From contig MU626311.1 of assembly GCA_025603075.1 (NCBI GenBank), forward strand, positions 52,840 to 116,839: a DNA stretch of 64,000 nt, given 5' to 3'. Positions 4,119-53,255 of this stretch are shown here, in pieces (within the stretch, counting starts at the first letter, position 1; every line of letters begins with the position of its first letter). Position numbers and translations under genes: made by a program. This stretch comes from Neoconidiobolus thromboides FSU 785 (lineage: Eukaryota > Entomophthoromycota > Entomophthoromycetes > Entomophthorales > Neoconidiobolaceae). The notes below the pieces were generated by a model. It was not told the DNA's origin, searched no databases, and saw nothing but the letters and a program-made list of their open reading frames with translations.

Positions 4119-4200
4119 GGCACCTTGGCGGAGTGGTTAACGCGGAGCCCTGCTAAGGCTTTTCCCTTTGGGAGCGCAGGTTCGAATCCTGTGGGTGTCG
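4119..4200 (+). tRNA. tRNA-Ser (anticodon GCT)
   Basis: 82-nt cloverleaf with a 7-bp acceptor stem that includes two G-U pairs, the D-arm GCGGAGTGGTTAACGC (4128-4143), and an anticodon stem gagcc/ggctt around loop CTGCTAA with anticodon GCT at 4152-4154. It has a long serine-type variable arm, the T-arm gcagg-TTCGAAT-cctgt and discriminator G. No intron. A T-run (cctttt, about 4213-4217) follows as a likely Pol III terminator. Confidence 0.95.
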
Positions 4201-15403: not shown

Positions 15404-18400
15404 TTAAATAAAAACGTCCACTGGGATAATATTTTCTGCTGAGAATGCACCTGCTTCAAGCGACACCTGTTCTAGAAACTTGGTAGGAAAGTCGACTAAA
15501 TGGCCTCGAACATTAGACAACACCTTCTTAACTTGATTAGGTTGAACAAGCCTAAAATCAGGATGACCTGTCTGAACCACATTAGAATTAGGAATAAACA
15601 ATTTATATTCATCCCAATTAGTTACTGTATCATCTGGCACACATCGGAATACTTTTCTAAAAGCTTTCGTATTATATTCTGACACATTAAACCAATAATG
15701 GTTGAAGGATTCTGATAATGGGTCTTTCACTACCTCATCTTTATGGTAGGATACGTCAGAGCCTGAGTGATGGGATGGTACTGGAGAAGTTGGTGACAGT
15801 ACTTCATTTAAATCCTCTCCTGCTTCAAAGTTGATAAGATTTACCATCTCAGTACCTGTTAATAAACCTAAATGTTCCTTAAAGAGCGTACATCTTAATG
15901 TATGGGCAAATTTGGCTACTTGGAACTAAGTAAAAAATAGGATTAAATAACCAATAATTAAAATATGTTTTTAATTACCTCTTTCCCAGCCATGGTAGAA
16001 GGAATCATTTCTTGATCTTCAACAATGATAGCCACTTCTGAATCCCTAAAACCAAGCATAGAACGATCATTGATATTAGCTGAACCGCAAATAACTACAC
16101 GATCATCCACAATCATTAATTTAGAATGAATATAAACCAATTCAGTTACATATTGAGAAGCTGCCTCATGGTTTTCTGCTTCAATAGGCTTATTGCCTTC
16201 CGCTTCTAACGGTGTATTGCTATGACTTTCTTCTGGCTTGTTGATATTTAATTTCAATTTCATTTCTTTTAACTTTATTTCAGTTTTATTCGAATGATCT
16301 ATTCCAGCTGGTATAACTGTAGTTGGTTCATTTTTGTTTAAATTCAAATTGTTTCTCTTTTCAACATAGGAAGGCAAGTCTTCCTTTTCTTCCATTTCCA
16401 ACGCTTCACTATTGTTCTCCTGATCTTTACTATAGCTACGCTTATTCTTATCTTTCTTTTTACCTTTTGTTTTGGGCTGAGCCACCCTACTCTCAGACTC
16501 TTCTTCATCAGAGGATCTGGAATCTGCATCAACGCCTTTAAAAGCATCCAAGATGTTCTTAAATGAACTTTCATTTCTTTTGATACTTTGTTGCAAATGT
16601 TTGGGAAGTGGGCTTTTAACATTACCCTGACTATTACTTCTAGTTTTTGGTAAATCAAAGTACCCTTCCGCCTGCTTCTCTGCTGGCGAATTAACGGTAA
16701 ACCTATCATAAACTGCAGGAGTTTGATTCCCTTCCTCGTCTGTCTCAACGTCTGGTTTATATTGATGAGATTGTGGTATAAAATCATAGTTTCTAAGGCC
16801 ATGGAAGTGAACGTATTTTGTTGGCTCAATGCCTTCTTTACGTAATTGCCCCATCACTGATTCATCCCCTCGACATATCGATTGGTATTGCCATTGCATT
16901 ACTAACCGAATTGTATTTGCACTAGCTTCATGTACGTCACTTTGAAAAGCTGGCATCAGTGGCATTATAATTATCACTTTAAATGGAGAATTTTCTTTAT
17001 GTGCTTTGATGATTCTTTTTACTAAGGCCTATTAAAGTGAATAAATAAATAAATAAATAAATAAATAAATATAGTAAACTTACTTTAGCAATTTGATTTT
17101 TAACCGAATAATTACTTTCCCCTTTAGCAGCAGAGACAAAAAATTGATTTTCAATATAAATAAAATGTTTGGCAGCTGCAATGTTTTGTATATAAGCAGT
17201 ATAAATAGAATTCTCCAATTCGATACCAGAAGACCACTCAGCACTAGATCTTAATACCTGTACCCTACAGCTACCTTTTAGACTTTCTTCATCATAATCC
17301 TTGGAAAACTCAGCTTGTGGTAAAAGGTAAGGTACTTTAAGTTTTTGTTTTGCTTTAGAAGTCTTTATGAAATTCCAACGTTCAATAAAATGTCTAGCAA
17401 CATCTCTAGCCCCTACACCAGTTAACGAAAGATGGATATCATGCCATGGCATTCTACCATGTTTCATACGGTCAATTAATTCTTTATTATAATCTTCTAC
17501 ATTTTCGAAATCTCTAATTCGCGCATTGGAATAATCCTGACCAGGAAAAATAATATCATTACCATCTGATAATGGGTTATAATCTGCTACACGATGCGAA
17601 TTATCATCATATCTACCAAAACAAAGATCCAAACCGCCAACAAACGCCAACTTGTTATCTATGATACAAATTTTCTCATGATGTGCCCAAAACCAGGTAC
17701 CATTGGCTTGTACACGATCTGGGTGACGCAACACCTTAATCCGTGGATGCAATTTCTTCAATGTTTGCTTGGTATGTGCCGAATTATTAGGAAGAGAAAC
17801 AGCAATCTCTTTATAAACGATGACAAATATATCAACACCCTGTAAAGCTTTCTTTTTCAATAAACGATCTAACCGAAAGGAAGGATATTGTGAAGGCGGT
17901 CTTCTTAAATATAGTTCTGGACTAAGCCACCAATCAGCAATATAAATGGTATCTTTAGCATGTAAAATAGCTTCAGAAACATCATAAAAATAACCAGCTG
18001 CATCTACATACCATTTCAAATTACAATTTTCTCTTATTGGAGCAAAGGAGTTGTAGCGATGTTCTTTTGTCCACATAGATTTTTTAATAGCTAAATTGAT
18101 ATGAGTACTCCAATGTTTGATGTCATTATAGGATTCCCCTTTTAAATCAATCTGTCTGTTGTGATCTATAATACTGATCTTACGATGATTTAAGGGATTC
18201 ATAGACTCAAAAGATGATAAGTTTAAGCTTGTAAATTGATTGAAAAGGTATACATCAATAGGGGAGGTATCATACACTGATTTACACATAGCGATATAAG
18301 AATCTCTTACAATAACCCATCTAGAAGACCATCTATGAAACATAATAGGAAAGCATCCCTTATTTGTTTTTGTGTTTCTTAAACTTAAAAACCCTTCTTT

Positions 18401-19428
18401 CCCTTTCCAACCCATCAGCTTTTTAAATGAGCATCCACTCATTTCCAAAAACTCAAATAATTCCTTAACCATCTGCATATTCAATAGCTTACACGCTGAT
18501 TTTAAATAGGCTTCTAATGCTTTTCTGCGCTCCAAGGACAACTGTGCCGAATGTTCTACATTTCTTGAAAATGCTCTTTGAAATGTATACGAAAAAATTG
18601 ACGGAAAGCTGGGGATTGCCTTCACTTTCCCTTGAAATTTGCGCTTGTGCATATTTGCTCTCAGCTCTAAAAAATCAATTAAGCGTCGATAGATCACCCA
18701 TCGAATAGGTCCATATTGTAGTTCAATACGAAATATATGACCATTGTCTTTAACACCATCCCCATCCATATCGGCAGAGGAATCCGTGATCTCAAGCTAA
18801 AAGTCAATAAATACAATGGTTTTCTTTTCATATTAGGGTTATAACTCAAAACTTACCTTTAGAGCTTCAAGTATAATAGCTGGGGGCTCTCTTCCATGAT
18901 CATAGTTGAAATGATAAGAAGGGATAGCTAAAGCACTAGTCAAAAGAGGAAAGATGCTTTGTTCTGAGATGTAGTTTTTCTTTTTCTGTCTTAAGACAGA
19001 GTTGGCTAACCTGATGTTAAATACCGCTTTCTTTAGTTTTTTAGTACCTTCTCTCTCTAATCCTAAATTATTATCATGTGGTATCATAGCAGTATTAGAG
19101 TTGATTGTTACTGCATTGCTTTTTGTGTTCTGGGCCGAGGCAGTTTCTTTGACGATACTATCCCCATCTAGATCCTGGTTTTTTGGTTCTTTCATAAAAC
19201 TATTTTCGTTTACCTCTCCTTCATTTAATGATATTTCTCCATTAATATCTTCTTTTATTGGTGACTTTATACTAGGTTCCATAGAGCTCTAAGAATATGG
19301 AGGGTATAATTATAAATTTAAAGTTGCATATAAAGGATACTACTTACCAAGTAAATGTTAGGGGGGTATTGCGTTGGATTTAATGGTGAGACAGGAATTG
19401 TTGTGTCTTCAGGTTCATTATGCGTCAT
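15404..19428 (-). CDS. Phospholipase D with PX and PH domains (Spo14/PLD1 type)
   Basis: Hydrolyses phosphatidylcholine to phosphatidic acid and choline. The coding path starts at ATG 19428 ([18 protein letters not shown]) and runs through exons near 19282-18855, 18797-17085, 17030-15970 and 15926-15404. Domains in order: an N-terminal low-complexity region; a PX domain ([19 protein letters not shown] to IPSFPSIF); a PH domain ([11 protein letters not shown] to [20 protein letters not shown]); first HKD motif [20 protein letters not shown]; the inter-[15 protein letters not shown]-type region ([18 protein letters not shown]); an inserted acidic/Ser-rich loop of about 170 residues; and the second HKD motif [20 protein letters not shown]. 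Both HxKxxxxD sites are intact, so it should be active. About 1,200 residues, normal for PLD1/Spo14. One intron carries an (AAAT)n repeat. Confidence 0.95.
17037..17070. repeat. (AAAT)n microsatellite in a PLD intron
   Basis: About eight tandem copies of a 4-bp AAAT unit within the intron between the two large PLD exons. Confidence 0.9.
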
Positions 19429-29665: not shown

Positions 29666-29736
29666 TGCGTAAACTGGGAATCGAACCCAGGCCACTTCTT
29701 TGGAAGAGAAGTATTCTACCTCTATACTATTTACGC
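29666..29736 (-). tRNA. tRNA-Gly (anticodon TCC)
   Basis: On the minus strand the 71-nt cloverleaf has a perfect GCGTAAA/TTTACGC acceptor, a D-arm, an anticodon stem CTTCT/AGAAG around loop CTTCCAA (anticodon TCC at 29704-29702), the T-arm CTGGG-TTCGATT-CCCAG and discriminator A. No intron. Confidence 0.96.
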
Positions 29737-30471: not shown

Positions 30472-33400
30472 TTAGGAAATTGAGTTTTTCCTTGAGATAG
30501 GGGAGGGGAAGGCATTAGTATCAAAGGGATTGAAGTAATTGGACCAATTAAACCAAGATTGAAAATTATTATTATTTGTGGTCGAATGCAATACCTTGCT
30601 GATATTAGATTGAAATAACTTGATCAAATTTTGAGATAATATGCTATTGTCAATAACTGCTATAGTGGGATTGATAACATCCTCAGCAATAGTACCATTT
30701 TCGTTAATAATATCCAACTTGACCTTAGGTTTTGGTAACTGATGACGTTGATTCGTTAAATTACACAACTTTTCTACAAAGGCGGTAATCTCTATTAATT
30801 GGTTCTCAAATTGATTGTTTGCATTGAGGATGTTAATATGCTTGTCTTTAATTTCGATTAACTTTAAAGATTCACAATTTTTTATGGCCAAATGAATGAA
30901 TTCTTTACTGATGGATTCCTTATAATGTAAATAATTGTTATGGATTCCGTTATAGATAACATGCTGTATCATAGTATAAAACTGATCATAACTCATGCTT
31001 TGATCCTGTTTCAAACTTGATAGGCCTGCTAATACGATCCAGAAAGTGTCGAGCTTAGAATGTAATAAGGTCAATAAGATATGGAAGTAATCCATGGTAT
31101 TTGGAGAGATGTTCATGATGATAAATTGATCCAATAATTGAATATAATTGCATTTGATGAATTTATTAAATAGCATTTCAATAGTGTATTGTTTTAAATA
31201 AATGATAATTTCAGGATATAAATTGAGGATTAATTTAATGATTTTGCTGAATTCTATTTCTACCTGTTGTTTGGTTATAAATCCTTGATATTCTGGCTGA
31301 CTTGAATATTTTTTGTGAGTGTAATAATAGCTCAATATAAAGATAGACTCAAATAAAAAGATGGGAATAATTGGCTTCGTTAATAAATTCAAGTACAATA
31401 TGGAATCAATGTCATCATTTAAATAAACCCGATTCACTTTGTAATTTAATAAGCCATCAACTTCCTCGTTATCTTCATTATCTTCCTCCCCTAACTTGAT
31501 TGTAAGGCGCTGCTCTCCAATTAAATTTAAAGCATAATTTAGCACAGCACTACTATCTTCATTCTCATTAAAATCCAAATTAAACCCCAAGTTGAATAGC
31601 TCTTTTTTAAATAAAATCAAATAATTCTGGATTTTATTTGAGGAAATTCCATCTTTGTTATTGCGATAACTTAATAACACTAATGATATTAAATTGATTG
31701 GTGATATCAATTGATTTTGACATTGCCAGGATTGGATCATATAACTAGAATGAGTCAAACTTAGGTCATTGTTATCCATCATTTTCAGTTGCTCTATTTT
31801 CATCTTTAGGTTGTTACGTTCTATGGGGTTCCCTATTGTTACCATAATCTTGCTATTCTTTTGATCCTTAAACAATTGAATTGAATTACTATTATTGTTT
31901 GTTTCCTTGTTACTTATATTACTATTCTTATCATTATTTCTGAATATAGCTTTGTTCTCATCATTAAGGTTATTATTATTAATATTATTGTATAGCTCAT
32001 TTATTAAATAATTATTATCATAATACATTTCATAATTGATAGAAATAGGGACTAACAAAATGTTTTGATTATTTAATTGTTCATTATTAATAATGTCATT
32101 AAACAAATCATCATATTGTTTCAAATCGACCATATCTTCTAATAACTTTGTATAGTCTTTAATTTGCTCGTTGCTACTATAAATTAAATCATTTAAAAAT
32201 AAGCAGATGGAATTGCTATTGTTCGTGCTATTATTATTATCATTTAATAATTTAACTAAATAAGTTTGTATTAATAATTGTACTAACTGCTCATCATTAT
32301 TGAATTGTTTGAATAATAACTTATTGTATATGATCCCCTGTTTGACTTTATAATATAATAGTTTATAACTCTGCTCAATACTTAAGATTGGCAATGGCAA
32401 ATTATAATAATAGCAGATATAAGTTAATAAATTAAAATCCAAAGAAGAAGTATGATTTGGGAGATAAATTACTTTGACTGAGTTTTGATTATTTTGATTG
32501 TTATATGAATAAATCATTTGCTTTAATTTCACTATATTATTCTTGTTGATAAGAATTGTTTGGTATTTCAAAAAGGAGGTTATATTATTAATTAATTTTT
32601 CTGGTTCAATACTATTTTCAATGACTAATAGCTCCTTTAAAATTCGATTTTGATATTTCTTACTATCCTCAGTATAATTTTGTTTCAAATAGTTCACTAC
32701 TGCTGAATCGTGGATCACTTTGCTCCTTAAGTTAACTAAACTGGATTTATCGTATAATGTTAAATTATTGTTATCAAAGATTAAATCTAAATCTTCCTTA
32801 TCATCGCTACTATTATTGTTGTTTAAATATTTGATATCTTCCCATCCCTCAATTAAGTAATCCTTCCTTAGCGTGGGATCTTCATTGAGTACAAAGTAAG
32901 ACATACCATAACAAAAATTCATAATATAATCTTTCCAATTCAAATTGATAATATCATCTGTTGAAATATCTCTGCTTAGAATACTATTTAATTGGTTTTT
33001 CTGATTCTTTTGTAGTTGTAATAAACTAAAATTTTGAAAGTACCAAGTATTGATCATAAAATGTTTAAAGCAATGATACAGGAAATCCAACTTTGGTTTT
33101 GCTTTCTTTAAATTCTCTGCTTTTTGTTTATCTTTGACCGTATTGATCATTGATAACGCCTTGAACTTGTAGTTTTGTTTTATTAGAAGCATCGCGTCAT
33201 GCTCCATATCATTTGAATATTTATGGAACGTTGGCGTAAATAAGCGCTTCTTTAGCGCCGGTAATTTGAGCCAAGAGTTGACCACATAGTTTCCGAAATC
33301 TAACCAAGTGATTGGATTGAGGCCTGATGATGAAGCATGATAAATTTTAGGGTAAACAACTTCCTCAGTGTCAATCTTTATCTTACTATCTAAATCCTTA

Positions 33401-34413
33401 ATCTGTCTTGTTTTATCTGCATAACTGATATTGAATTCAGTTCCTGGTTTACTATTGAACTCATAGCACGCTTTCAATACTATTTTTGCCAGGTAATCCA
33501 CTGGTACCAAATCTAATACCGAATCCCTTGGACCAGGGGTAGAGTCCAAGATTCCTAATCCGATATACATAGCTATAGCGTTGGCAGCTGCCACACCATC
33601 AACCCAGCCTGGAACGGGGTCATAAGCGGTGGAAGTGACTACTGTTGGTCTGACAATAGCTAAATTAAACGCTTTTCTACCATTAGCTATCTCTCTTTGC
33701 TTCATTTCTTCAGCCTTAATCAAGATCATATTCTCCGCCAATGATTTGGTAAATGTATAAGTATTTGGATAGCACGTTAAGATTTTGTCTGTGAATTGCT
33801 TGATCTGTTCCAAATCCATATTTTGTATCTGCTCGACGAGTTCTTTTACATCACCAAAGATCATAGGATAAATACGCTCATAAATTTCCTTCTCTTTACG
33901 ATTAGAATTGACATATGCTGTGGACACATGGACGAAGCCATCAAAGTTATGACATTGATCCGCTATTTCGACAAGCTGTAAGGTACCTAAAGTGTTTAGT
34001 TTTAATGAGCGATCCAAGCGCTCATTGAAGTCCACCGTGGCTGCGCAATGTATGATAATATTCAAATCATTTTTTAACATCTCTAGATCATTATCTTGAA
34101 TCCCCAAACCAGGCAAAGAAATATCACCTTGAATTGGTATAAGCTTTGGAAGGATTAAATGATAGAATTGTTTAATTGATAGATGGTCTTTTAATACATT
34201 AAATAATTTGTTGCTTAAGATCTCATCCACAATACGCTGCTTAATACTCTTGCCTTTTTTTTCTCGAATTAATAAGTAGACCTTTTCGATATGTACATAA
34301 TGGTCACGTAGTATCAATTCTAATATACACTTGCCTACAAACCCAGTACCGCCTGTTAGTAGTATGCTCTTGCCGTGTAAGAAGGAAGAGTCCAAAGGGA
34401 ATTTATTCACCAT
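30472..34413 (-). CDS. Fatty acyl-CoA reductase fused to a GPAT/DHAPAT-type acyltransferase
   Basis: Single-exon gene of 1,313 codons. The N-terminal ~450 residues are a fatty acyl-CoA reductase: Rossmann TGGTGFVG at residues 20-27, CAATVDFNE, HVSTAYVNS, catalytic YTFTK (YxxxK, near residue 217), IVRPTVVTSTAYDPVPGWVD and LVPVDYLAKI. This part makes fatty alcohols from acyl-CoA with NADPH. The central part has glycerol-3-phosphate/DHAP acyltransferase blocks: NHTSSLDF (HX4D, near residue 654) and LLVPISINYEMYYD (near residue 786). The rest is helical. Asn-rich tracts interrupt the acyltransferase half. Reductase plus DHAP acyltransferase would link two steps of ether-lipid synthesis; Dictyostelium has a comparable FAR-acyltransferase fusion. 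The C-terminus (SRKNSIS) is not a canonical PTS1. Domain calls are firm; the pathway is inference. Confidence 0.88.
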   Translation of the reverse strand: MVNKFPLDSSFLHGKSILLTGGTGFVGKCILELILRDHYVHIEKVYLLIREKKGKSIKQRIVDEILSNKLFNVLKDHLSIKQFYHLILPKLIPIQGDISLPGLGIQDNDLEMLKNDLNIIIHCAATVDFNERLDRSLKLNTLGTLQLVEIADQCHNFDGFVHVSTAYVNSNRKEKEIYERIYPMIFGDVKELVEQIQNMDLEQIKQFTDKILTCYPNTYTFTKSLAENMILIKAEEMKQREIANGRKAFNLAIVRPTVVTSTAYDPVPGWVDGVAAANAIAMYIGLGILDSTPGPRDSVLDLVPVDYLAKIVLKACYEFNSKPGTEFNISYADKTRQIKDLDSKIKIDTEEVVYPKIYHASSSGLNPITWLDFGNYVVNSWLKLPALKKRLFTPTFHKYSNDMEHDAMLLIKQNYKFKALSMINTVKDKQKAENLKKAKPKLDFLYHCFKHFMINTWYFQNFSLLQLQKNQKNQLNSILSRDISTDDIINLNWKDYIMNFCYGMSYFVLNEDPTLRKDYLIEGWEDIKYLNNNNSSDDKEDLDLIFDNNNLTLYDKSSLVNLRSKVIHDSAVVNYLKQNYTEDSKKYQNRILKELLVIENSIEPEKLINNITSFLKYQTILINKNNIVKLKQMIYSYNNQNNQNSVKVIYLPNHTSSLDFNLLTYICYYYNLPLPILSIEQSYKLLYYKVKQGIIYNKLLFKQFNNDEQLVQLLIQTYLVKLLNDNNNSTNNSNSICLFLNDLIYSSNEQIKDYTKLLEDMVDLKQYDDLFNDIINNEQLNNQNILLVPISINYEMYYDNNYLINELYNNINNNNLNDENKAIFRNNDKNSNISNKETNNNSNSIQLFKDQKNSKIMVTIGNPIERNNLKMKIEQLKMMDNNDLSLTHSSYMIQSWQCQNQLISPINLISLVLLSYRNNKDGISSNKIQNYLILFKKELFNLGFNLDFNENEDSSAVLNYALNLIGEQRLTIKLGEEDNEDNEEVDGLLNYKVNRVYLNDDIDSILYLNLLTKPIIPIFLFESIFILSYYYTHKKYSSQPEYQGFITKQQVEIEFSKIIKLILNLYPEIIIYLKQYTIEMLFNKFIKCNYIQLLDQFIIMNISPNTMDYFHILLTLLHSKLDTFWIVLAGLSSLKQDQSMSYDQFYTMIQHVIYNGIHNNYLHYKESISKEFIHLAIKNCESLKLIEIKDKHINILNANNQFENQLIEITAFVEKLCNLTNQRHQLPKPKVKLDIINENGTIAEDVINPTIAVIDNSILSQNLIKLFQSNISKVLHSTTNNNNFQSWFNWSNYFNPFDTNAFPSPISRKNSIS

Positions 34414-50716: not shown

Positions 50717-52636
50717 TTATTTTCTAATATAAATTAAACCTAAGCCATGTAATACATTACTTGAGTAACCATAAAAACCACGAATTATACAATTAGGAGG
50801 TAAATATAAAGAACTTGATTTACCACCATGGCCACCAAACCATTGATTTTGATTCTGATTATTAATATTAAATTGAAAACCATCTACAAAATAACCAGCA
50901 TTTACTTTCATACTAATAACTTGATTTAAATTTAGATTATTTAAATTATATTGATTTCCACCATTACCACCACATTCAAATATTAATTCATTATTATTAT
51001 TATTATAAAATTTAATACCGTCAATATAAATACCTGCATGAATTAATAAATTAATAGAATTAATAGAATTATCAAATATAACTTCAAAATATTGAATATT
51101 AGGATGATTATTATTAGTTGTACCAATTACTTCCCCTTTATAATAACATTGATTATGTTTAATAATTTTTGAATTTAATATAAATGATTTAAAATCATTA
51201 ATTATTTTTAATTGATATAATCCATTAATTTCCATACGTAAGTTATTATATTTTTCATTTTGAATTAAATTAATTATTTCTTGATTAATTGAAATTTCAA
51301 CTTTCTTAGGTAATTGATTTAAATGTTGTTTCATATGATTTTGAATATATAATATTTCATCTCCATTTAAAATAAGAATTTGACCAATCCCATTATTAAA
51401 TTCAATATGAATCTTTTCATCTATAAAATATAACTTAAACTGTTCTAAATTATTATTATAAAACATATATTCATTAGGTATTGAACAACATCTATGCAAT
51501 CTCATTCGATTTAAATTAGTGATATGAAAATGAGCCATATTATGTTCTAAAATAGGAATAAATCTATTACTCTTTGGACAAACTAATAAAAATGGTTTAT
51601 AAAATTCTTCATAACCTCGATTCATAATTCCAGTAGGCGTATGAGGACAACCTAAAGCATGTACGACTTCATGTAAAAATGCACCAATACCAATACAATA
51701 AGCGTCCATATGAAGACCTGTACCTTTACGTTCATCTGCTAAATAATTACGATCAACTTTAGTTAAGTCCATAAAACATGGTATTATTTCTGAGATTGTT
51801 TCTGGCCATGCAAAAGTGGTATGAGATCCCATTATAGACATTAATTCTTTATCATTAATGCCTTGAACAGCTGCATGACCTCGAATTAAATCTATTTCTC
51901 GATCATATTTTGTATCTAATATTAAACAGGCTACTCGAAATTCATCTTTAATTCCATATTTATTTAAGGTTTCTTTTAATATATTTAATAAGCCTGGTTT
52001 ACTTTTATCTACTGGTAAATCACCCTCTTTAAATTTATATTGTTGTGCAATATCTTTATCTCGTATTTGTTCCATTGTATATTCACTTTTTAATATCATT
52101 ACATCTGCTGTATTATTAAATATGTTTTCATTAGTATAAATCGTATCTTGTTGATATTTTTCAACAAAATTAATCGTACTATTATTATAACCATTAATAA
52201 TCATTTGTTCCCTAATATAAGCTTGCCAAATATAAGCTGCCATTCTTAGTCTTCTAATTGCACTATCAAGGTCATTTCTTTTATTAGGTAAATTTTCAAA
52301 AGTTAAATCACTATCTTTAGCAACTAAAATAGCTAATTGATACGCTGGTTTTGTATTATCTCGTTGGTAATTTAAATTCAAATGATATTCTATTTGATTA
52401 AAATAAAATTGAATTAGATTATTACCTTCAATTAATGGTACTAAACATTTAAATATATTATTAACTACCGAATAATGATATATTTGTTTTAAAGTGTCGA
52501 TAACAACTAAAGCACCTTCTTTATCAGTGTTGTTATTCTTAATTTCTCCAGTTATTAAAATTAACTTTTGATAAACTATTTCTTCATTTTTTACATTTAA
52601 TAAATTAATAAATCCGCAATTATTAACTTCACTCAT
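50717..52636 (-). CDS. Zinc metalloprotease with C-terminal jacalin-like lectin domain
   Basis: Single exon, 639 residues, no clear signal peptide (MSEVNNCGFINLLNVKNEEI). The catalytic helix HEVVHALGCPHT is an HExxHxxGxxH zincin site, followed by GIMNRGYEEFYKP. Context such as AAYIWQAYIREQMI matches the fungal 'putative peptidase' family (like yeast YIL108W). The C-terminal ~120 residues (YFEVIFDNSINSINLLIHAG, YIDGIKFY, QWFGGHGGKSSSLYLPPN, GLIYIRK) form a jacalin-like beta-prism. The middle is Asn-rich. Substrate is unknown; likely intracellular. Confidence 0.85.
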   Translation of the reverse strand: MSEVNNCGFINLLNVKNEEIVYQKLILITGEIKNNNTDKEGALVVIDTLKQIYHYSVVNNIFKCLVPLIEGNNLIQFYFNQIEYHLNLNYQRDNTKPAYQLAILVAKDSDLTFENLPNKRNDLDSAIRRLRMAAYIWQAYIREQMIINGYNNSTINFVEKYQQDTIYTNENIFNNTADVMILKSEYTMEQIRDKDIAQQYKFKEGDLPVDKSKPGLLNILKETLNKYGIKDEFRVACLILDTKYDREIDLIRGHAAVQGINDKELMSIMGSHTTFAWPETISEIIPCFMDLTKVDRNYLADERKGTGLHMDAYCIGIGAFLHEVVHALGCPHTPTGIMNRGYEEFYKPFLLVCPKSNRFIPILEHNMAHFHITNLNRMRLHRCCSIPNEYMFYNNNLEQFKLYFIDEKIHIEFNNGIGQILILNGDEILYIQNHMKQHLNQLPKKVEISINQEIINLIQNEKYNNLRMEINGLYQLKIINDFKSFILNSKIIKHNQCYYKGEVIGTTNNNHPNIQYFEVIFDNSINSINLLIHAGIYIDGIKFYNNNNNELIFECGGNGGNQYNLNNLNLNQVISMKVNAGYFVDGFQFNINNQNQNQWFGGHGGKSSSLYLPPNCIIRGFYGYSSNVLHGLGLIYIRK

Positions 52637-53255
52637 ATTTACTACAATTGTATATTATTTTATCTTTCTAATTGAAATTTGATATAAATTTTTTTAAAAT
52701 GAATATAGTAAATACAAATACTATTAAAACTACTTATTTACTCAATTCAATGTGATTGGTCAGAATAGAATGATTCAATAGCTTACTAAATTTAGTAGTT
52801 TCCAGCTTGTTAAATGGGTTGGCTATTTATTTGTTAAAGAATAAATTAATTAAAAAAAACCCAAGTGGGATAAAATTTTTGGTAAAATAAAGGCTGTTTA
52901 AGGGTCAATTGAGTTCAATAGTATAGAAATATTTAAATATTATAATATTAATTATTAATATAAAAATAAGTATTATGTTTATATTTATTTAAATAAAGAT
53001 GAAACTTTATTATTGAATTAATATATTAGCATTTATTGAAGCTTAGTAAGTTGTAAAGTGGTGGTTATTACAATTATTTGTTTTAAAAGTTGGTTGATTT
53101 TTAGCCACAAGATCTATATTTAAATGTTCTATAAATTTCAAATATGCCCTTAAATAATAAAACATTGAAAAATTTAAGAATTTTATAGTCACCGGTAAAA
53201 AATGAGGTATAAAAACAATTTAATACTTTGATTTTTTTTTTAACTTTTTGTCAAC
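52637..53255. other. Metalloprotease upstream region
   Basis: AT-rich; a gtataaaa TATA-like word sits near 53202, about 53 bp before the small frame at 53256. Nothing else seen. Confidence 0.4.

What the first reader, a model, noticed from the sequence alone, without database searches (positions are those of the whole stretch)
30472..34413. Intronless fatty acyl-CoA reductase fused to a GPAT/DHAPAT-like acyltransferase
One 1,313-codon exon carries a full reductase (TGGTGFVG, YTFTK) and, in the same chain, acyltransferase motifs NHTSSLDF and VPISINYE. These would couple fatty alcohol supply with DHAP/glycerol-3-phosphate acylation, two inputs for ether lipids. The architecture resembles the fusion known in Dictyostelium, but it is unexpected in fungi, which mostly lack ether phospholipids. 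It has no introns although nearby genes have many, which could reflect transfer or an old retrocopy. No peroxisomal PTS1 is present.
Basis: partly seen in the sequence, partly recalled or inferred. Interest (0 to 1): 0.75.

Follow-up and report, generated by a model that had tools for sequence, protein, structure and literature searches.

The report
Fatty-alcohol enzyme with a worn half
In this early-branching fungus a two-part enzyme that elsewhere starts ether-lipid synthesis seems to have kept its fatty-alcohol-making half, while its acyltransferase half has lost key active-site motifs, a possible trace of how fungi gave up ether lipids.

Summary
The ORF is real: 1,313 codons, one exon, minus strand, 30475-34413. 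It joins an alcohol-forming fatty acyl-CoA reductase (FAR) with intact motifs to a GPAT/DHAPAT-type acyltransferase (AT), the FARAT architecture of Dictyostelium and Tetrahymena. The fusion is not odd for early fungi: Mucoromycotina, a chytrid and Entomophthoromycotina have it, and their FAR halves form one clade. And it probably does not start ether lipids. The AT half keeps motifs I (HTSSLD) and IV but has lost II and III, with no arginine in the 127 residues between I and IV. It has no PTS1. I found no AGPS in the genome, which has a separate, intact, intron-split GPAT. In the alignment 0 of 39 fungal-clade rows keep motifs I, II and III together, against 58 of 59 other rows. AT/FAR divergence is 5.0 in Entomophthoromycotina, 1.28 in protist-type rows. 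Best reading: a FARAT-derived FAR with a folded pseudo-acyltransferase tail, making free fatty alcohol; a relative, Conidiobolus coronatus, secretes dodecanol. No activity was tested. Confidence 0.65.

The parts
30472..34413 (-). Whole gene: FARAT-derived protein, 1,313 aa plus stop, single exon
   Evidence: homologues
33481..34359 (-). FAR catalytic domain (NAD_binding_4, residues 19-311)
   Evidence: E 1.3e-63
34333..34356 (-). NADPH-binding TGGTGFVG (residues 20-27), intact
33745..33759 (-). FAR active-site YxxxK (YTFTK, residues 219-223), intact
32881..33117 (-). FAR C-terminal 'Sterile' domain (residues 433-511), under the Pfam cut-off
   Evidence: E 2.2e-7, 31.4 bits against 35.4
32434..32457 (-). 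AT motif I NHTSSLDF (residues 653-660): HX4D kept
32053..32433 (-). Stretch that should hold AT motifs II (GAFFxRR) and III (FxEGxRSRxGK): both absent, 0 Arg in 127 residues
32029..32052 (-). AT motif IV VPISINYE (residues 788-795), kept
30853..31785 (-). GPAT_C region (residues 877-1187), fold retained in the model
   Evidence: E 5.4e-11
30475..30483 (-). C-terminus SIS: no PTS1

Best explanation
The gene descends from a bifunctional FAR-DHAPAT (FARAT) held by several early-diverging fungal lineages. The N-terminal half works as an alcohol-forming fatty acyl-CoA reductase (acyl-CoA + 2 NADPH -> fatty alcohol; activity inferred from motifs). The C-terminal half still folds like GPAT1 but is a pseudo-acyltransferase: motifs II and III, whose arginines and EGxRSR hold the phosphate of G3P/DHAP (role recalled), are gone, so it should not acylate DHAP or G3P. 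Without AGPS and without a PTS1, the alcohol would not enter a peroxisomal ether-lipid pathway; it would leave as free fatty alcohol or be esterified elsewhere. Glycerolipid acylation would be done by the separate intact GPAT. The AT tail was probably kept open because it helps the FAR half fold, assemble or attach to membranes (inferred). Shown: domain anatomy, motif loss, placement in the FAR tree, rate difference, no AGPS match found. Inferred: all activities, localisation and end products.
Against: Motif I His-Asp and motif IV remain in the window, Massospora and P0020, more than a relic needs. The 798-codon AT frame has no stop, so it is still selected for something. Genome completeness is unknown (392 contigs), so AGPS may sit in a gap or in very short exons; the C12 gene matches Dictyostelium AGPS at 35% over 77 residues and only its last exon was named, as glcD-type. 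The AlphaFold model used an alignment with intact relatives, which can pull the fold towards the family. The dodecanol link is to another species, and the word 'reductase' does not occur in that paper's main text. Only the best 120 of 2,015 hits are listed, so a fungal FARAT with an intact AT could exist unseen.
Confidence: 0.65

Rival explanations
1. Working bifunctional FARAT: the AT half still acylates DHAP/G3P by divergent residues and the pathway to ether lipids exists.
For: FARAT architecture; HX4D and motif IV kept; GPAT1 fold in the model.
Against: Motifs II and III absent, no Arg between I and IV; no PTS1, although 47 of 59 rows outside the fungal clade end in a PTS1-like tripeptide; no AGPS found; fungi reported to lack ether lipids.
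Confidence: 0.08
2. Repurposed acyltransferase: with HX4D kept and the phosphate pocket gone, the AT half now acylates an uncharged acceptor, perhaps the fatty alcohol made by its own FAR half, giving wax esters from one chain.
For: HX4D kept in 3 of 5 Entomophthoromycotina rows that reach it while II and III are lost in all 5; the frame stays open.
Against: Two of those 5 lost the His as well; the fast AT evolution fits relaxation better than a new function; I did not look systematically for a newly conserved block.
Confidence: 0.07
3. Pure relic: the AT tail has no role at all and is decaying neutrally behind a useful FAR.
For: Fast AT evolution; earlier ends in C. coronatus and P0015; 13-18% Asn in every region beyond residue 515.
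Against: No stop in 798 codons where the other five frames carry 60-123; Massospora and the window still share 26% in GPAT_C.
Confidence: 0.15
4. Gene-model or sequencing artefact hides intact motifs II and III.
For: The stretch between motifs I and IV is Asn-rich and poorly conserved; a database protein from the same contig (P0014) stops at residue 693.
Against: One uninterrupted frame; Massospora and P0020, from other sources, lack the same motifs at the same place and align across it; the words EGxR, RSR and GAF occur nowhere in the protein.
Confidence: 0.03

Closest known systems
FARAT (fatA) of Dictyostelium discoideum
   Same: Order FAR then AT in one chain of similar length (1,279 aa in the paper; P0011 is 1,278 aa); homologous along the chain.
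   Different: Dictyostelium keeps the four AT motifs, ends in SKL, is peroxisomal and needed for the ether-type storage lipid (PMC7375469, passages), with an AGPS alongside (PMC13256971, passages; P0128). The window protein has lost motifs II, III and the PTS1, and no AGPS was found.
TtFARAT of Tetrahymena thermophila
   Same: Same architecture; the title of its paper says that it forms both precursors for ether lipids (reference list of PMC5466440; statement in PMC7375469).
   Different: Reported to have a functional FAR and to make both precursors; the window's AT half lacks two motifs. The original paper was not held and its sequence was not compared here.
FARAT-like proteins of Mucoromycotina (Phycomyces, Rhizopus, Mucor, Umbelopsis and others)
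   Same: Another lineage of the same fungal FAR clade; no PTS1 in 30 of 30.
   Different: Opposite damage: motif I His replaced (Ser in 29 of 30 rows, Cys in 1) and motif III EG changed to E[KR], but II and RSR kept in 30 of 30; AT/FAR ratio only 1.68.
Myxobacterial MXAN_1675 (FAR1-like plus GNPAT-like domain)
   Same: Same two-domain idea, in a bacterial operon (PMC9131029, passages).
   Different: Bacterial, beside an AGPS gene in its operon; sequence not compared here.
Human GPAT1 / PlsB-type GPAT
   Same: AT half models on 8e4y.
   Different: Acceptor-binding motifs missing. The genome's own C2 gene is the intact member.

Membership tests
FARAT (bifunctional FAR-DHAPAT) | N-terminal FAR with TGxxGxxG and YxxxK | tested here: met
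FARAT (bifunctional FAR-DHAPAT) | GPAT/DHAPAT-type domain C-terminal in the same chain | tested here: met
   GPAT_C E 5.4e-11; fold matches 8e4y
FARAT (bifunctional FAR-DHAPAT) | Acyltransferase motifs I, II, III and IV intact | tested here: not met
   II and III absent
FARAT (bifunctional FAR-DHAPAT) | Peroxisomal targeting signal | tested here: not met
   ends SIS, no PTS2-like match in residues 1-60; 12 of 59 rows outside the fungal clade also lack a PTS1-like end
FARAT (bifunctional FAR-DHAPAT) | AGPS partner in the same genome | tested here: not met
   no AGPS found in four searches; genome completeness unknown
FARAT (bifunctional FAR-DHAPAT) | Descent: FAR half groups with FARATs, apart from FAR-only animal enzymes | tested here: met
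   (quick tree, 65 rows; midpoint root)
FARAT (bifunctional FAR-DHAPAT) | Both enzyme activities | not testable with these tools
   needs biochemistry
Alcohol-forming fatty acyl-CoA reductase (FAR) | NAD_binding_4 plus active-site S/Y/K | tested here: met
   (S164, Y219, K223 invariant among the five aligned rows; catalytic role recalled)
Alcohol-forming fatty acyl-CoA reductase (FAR) | C-terminal Sterile domain (PF03015) | tested here: inconclusive
   31.4 bits against cut-off 35.4, E 2.2e-7
GPAT/DHAPAT (PlsB-type) acyltransferase | HX4D plus motifs II and III for acceptor binding | tested here: not met
   HX4D kept, II and III lost

The most novel reading that the evidence does not exclude
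In Entomophthoromycotina the AT half, with its HX4D kept but its phosphate-binding motifs gone, has become an acyltransferase for an uncharged acceptor, so that one polypeptide reduces acyl-CoA to fatty alcohol and then esterifies it: a self-contained wax-ester synthase built from an ether-lipid enzyme.
Probability: 0.07. Interest if true: 0.75.

Novelty: new variant of a known kind. Interest (0 to 1): 0.5.

Why it matters
Papers state that fungi apparently lack ether lipids. This family shows a possible molecular trace of the loss: an ancestral bifunctional enzyme kept in several early fungal lineages, whose acyltransferase half was disabled in different ways in different lineages (motif I His replaced in Mucoromycotina; motifs II and III lost in Entomophthoromycotina; an early end in Conidiobolus coronatus) while the reductase motifs stayed. 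It makes the question 'when and how did fungi lose ether lipids, and what do they do with the fatty alcohol' testable with single-gene experiments. It also names a candidate gene for the dodecanol that C. coronatus secretes, and warns that annotation from domain order alone would wrongly give these fungi ether-lipid synthesis.

Tried and rejected
Recent transfer from an amoeba: rejected because the FAR half sits in a fungal clade. Retrocopy: no support, not excluded for an ancestor.

Frameshift or hidden intron at the missing motifs: rejected. No GT follows the point where database protein P0014 stops.

AGPS in the genome: PF02913, PF01565, a human AGPS fragment and Dictyostelium AGPS were tried; only other FAD oxidases matched. 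Plasmalogen desaturase PF10520: no match, but no control genome rang either, so nothing follows. Peroxin family PF04757 is present, so the missing PTS1 is not explained by absence of that family.

AGPS across fungi: one search with Dictyostelium AGPS listed 120 of 4,652 hits, no fungal name among the named ones; most rows are unnamed and the list is cut, so it shows nothing about fungi at large.

Rows dropped: of 127 proteins plus the window were aligned for the motif count. The 30 left out are FAR-type proteins of animals and metagenomes, bacterial-type multidomain proteins P0005-P0009 and the window's own fragment P0014. One of them, beetle P0114, carries an acyltransferase domain and was not examined. 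Three of the dropped metagenome rows (P0121, P0124, P0126) group with Umbelopsis in the FAR tree.
Full report
Observation. A single ATG-started frame of 1,313 codons runs on the minus strand from 34413 to 30472. Pfam finds a strong FAR domain, a Sterile domain under its cut-off, a GPAT_C domain over its cut-off, and a sub-threshold PF01553 match that covers little more than motif I. The best PDB match is a fatty acyl-CoA reductase, 7eoz, E 1.3e-35; GPAT1 appears only at E 0.057. The frame is real coding sequence: 0 stops in 798 codons from residue 516 on, against 60-123 in each of the other five frames.

Relatives. The first search gave 9 proteins: Massospora cicadina (1,336 aa, 38% over 90%), Conidiobolus coronatus (905 aa), Heterostelium, one unnamed FARAT-like protein and five multidomain proteins. 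A profile search gave 2,015 hits, 120 listed; the named ones with both domain types include Mucoromycotina, a chytrid (Geranomyces), oomycetes, a ciliate, Amoebozoa, a dinoflagellate and a thraustochytrid, besides FAR-type proteins of animals. In a tree of the FAR half (65 rows, quick method, SH-aLRT support, midpoint root) the window groups with Massospora and Entomophthora muscae (96), then with C. coronatus and two metagenome proteins (99), inside a 21-row clade that holds every named fungus in the tree (99), next to a 9-row group of four dictyostelids and five unnamed rows (81); Balamuthia and Acanthamoeba fall elsewhere. That the window comes from Entomophthoromycotina is an inference from this placement; the genome itself is unnamed (23.1 Mb, 392 contigs).

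State of the acyltransferase. I aligned the window and 97 of the 127 proteins and scored motifs at fixed columns. Motif names and roles (I: His-Asp catalysis; II and III: phosphate of G3P/DHAP; IV: near the acyl chain) are recalled from the GPAT literature, from no call. Rows outside the fungal clade: motif I 59 of 59, II 58 of 59 (a lenient rule), III (EG, and RSR) 58 of 59, IV 56 of 59, PTS1-like end 47 of 59; the exceptions on motifs are P0076, P0111 and P0127, the last two short (731 and 636 aa). Mucoromycotina clade (30 rows, one of them, P0073, unnamed): motif I His 0 of 30, II 30 of 30, RSR 30 of 30, EG 0 of 30, IV 30 of 30, PTS1 0 of 30. Entomophthoromycotina: 5 of 6 rows reach the AT; I 3 of 5, II 0 of 5, III 0 of 5, IV 4 of 5; PTS1 0 of 6. 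The other three fungal-clade rows: Geranomyces lacks the motif I His, II and EG but keeps RSR and an AKL end; Podila P0035 has no recognisable AT domain; a second Spinellus protein, P0120, lacks the His, EG and RSR but has GAYYVKR, a near-intact motif II that my rule does not count. So 0 of 39 fungal-clade rows have I, II and III together, with P0019 too short to judge. The clade's support in that FastTree is 86. Columns at motif II are hard to align in Entomophthoromycotina; but in the window no Arg occurs between motifs I and IV (127 residues, 0 Arg, 9 Lys; Dictyostelium has 8 Arg in 108), and the words EGxR, RSR and GAF occur nowhere in the protein. Massospora has 6 Arg and P0020 5 in that stretch, so the total lack of Arg is the window's own feature.

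Rates. Path lengths in trees of the FAR (residues 8-320) and the AT (621-1190) give a median AT/FAR ratio of 1.28 among 31 protist-type rows, most of them unnamed (465 pairs), 1.68 among 12 Mucoromycotina (66 pairs) and 5.0, range 3.85-7.24, among 5 Entomophthoromycotina (10 pairs, not independent; two of the five are short). Long AT branches make the absolute lengths rough. Between the window and Massospora identity falls from 65% in the FAR to 27% in the AT motif region and 26% in GPAT_C. So in Entomophthoromycotina the AT looks relaxed, while in Mucoromycotina a His-less AT is still conserved.

The rest of the genome. The FAD_binding_4 and FAD-oxidase_C matches are two BBE-type oxidases, an ALO-type, a DHCR24-like and a glcD-type gene (L004's and the DHCR24-like name are my reading). 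AGPS queries gave nothing better than genes of that set. As a positive control, Dictyostelium FARAT finds the intron-split GPAT gene on contig C2 exon by exon, best E 9.2e-16 at 42% identity. That gene has all four motifs (HKSHID, GGAFYIRR, FIEGTRSRTGK, LPISIGYD); its joined exons score PF01553 E 6.2e-22 and PF19277 E 7.2e-92. The PF04757 peroxin family is present. Of 11 NAD_binding_4 matches, the four strong ones besides this gene are Lys2 (TIGR03443, 1157 bits, on the part held) and three CAR-like adenylating reductases; of the six weaker ones one reads as a sugar epimerase and five were not named.

Interpretation. The protein works, most likely, as a FAR with a pseudo-acyltransferase tail. 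It is a FARAT by descent and architecture but fails the motif and PTS1 tests of a working FARAT, and no AGPS partner was found. That C. coronatus secretes dodecanol (PMC8342708: abstract and passages) shows that a member of this group releases a free fatty alcohol; the passages name no enzyme, and P0002 is offered as a candidate only. Dictyostelium FARAT facts come from passages of PMC7375469; the statement that fungi apparently lack ether lipids from passages of PMC13256971 and, for plasmalogens, PMC9131029. The Tetrahymena paper itself was not held.

Limits. No activity was measured; genome completeness is unknown; only 120 of 2,015 homologues were visible; two key rows (P0015, P0020) are unnamed metagenome proteins; the trees are quick ones.

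Noticed in passing
Proteins of the 30-row Mucoromycotina clade, such as P0048, P0052, P0057: In 30 of 30 the AT motif I His is replaced (Ser in 29, Cys in 1) while motif II and RSR stay and the domain is fairly well conserved: a second, different kind of pseudo-acyltransferase, perhaps still binding G3P/DHAP.
   Followed up: partly
P0035, P0052, P0084, P0104: Fungal FAR/FARAT-like proteins are named 'cyclin-dependent kinase inhibitor far1' in public records, apparently a mix-up of yeast Far1 with fatty acyl-CoA reductase 1.
   Followed up: no
P0014: A database protein from the window's own contig equals residues 1-693 of this gene and stops there with no GT following: an incomplete gene model.
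   Followed up: partly
G000 contig C2, about 228620-230570 (+), L022: Intact PlsB-type GPAT gene split by several introns, in contrast to the intronless FARAT gene.
   Followed up: yes
G000 contigs C112 (two genes) and C13: Three CAR-like adenylation/thioester-reductase genes, two of them close together on C112.
   Followed up: no
window 50717-52654 (-): Putative metallopeptidase (PF12044) followed by a jacalin-like lectin domain in one 645-aa frame.
   Followed up: no
window 15958-18796 (-): PX-PH-PLD phospholipase D gene in two overlapping frames, probably an intron or a frame break.
   Followed up: no
window 29666-29736 (-) and 4119-4200 (+): tRNA-Gly(TCC) just downstream of the FARAT gene, and tRNA-Ser(GCT).
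   Followed up: no
P0114, Carabus blaptoides: A 1,355-aa beetle protein is listed with FAR and lysophospholipid-acyltransferase-type Pfam domains; either a separate fusion or a merged gene model.
   Followed up: no
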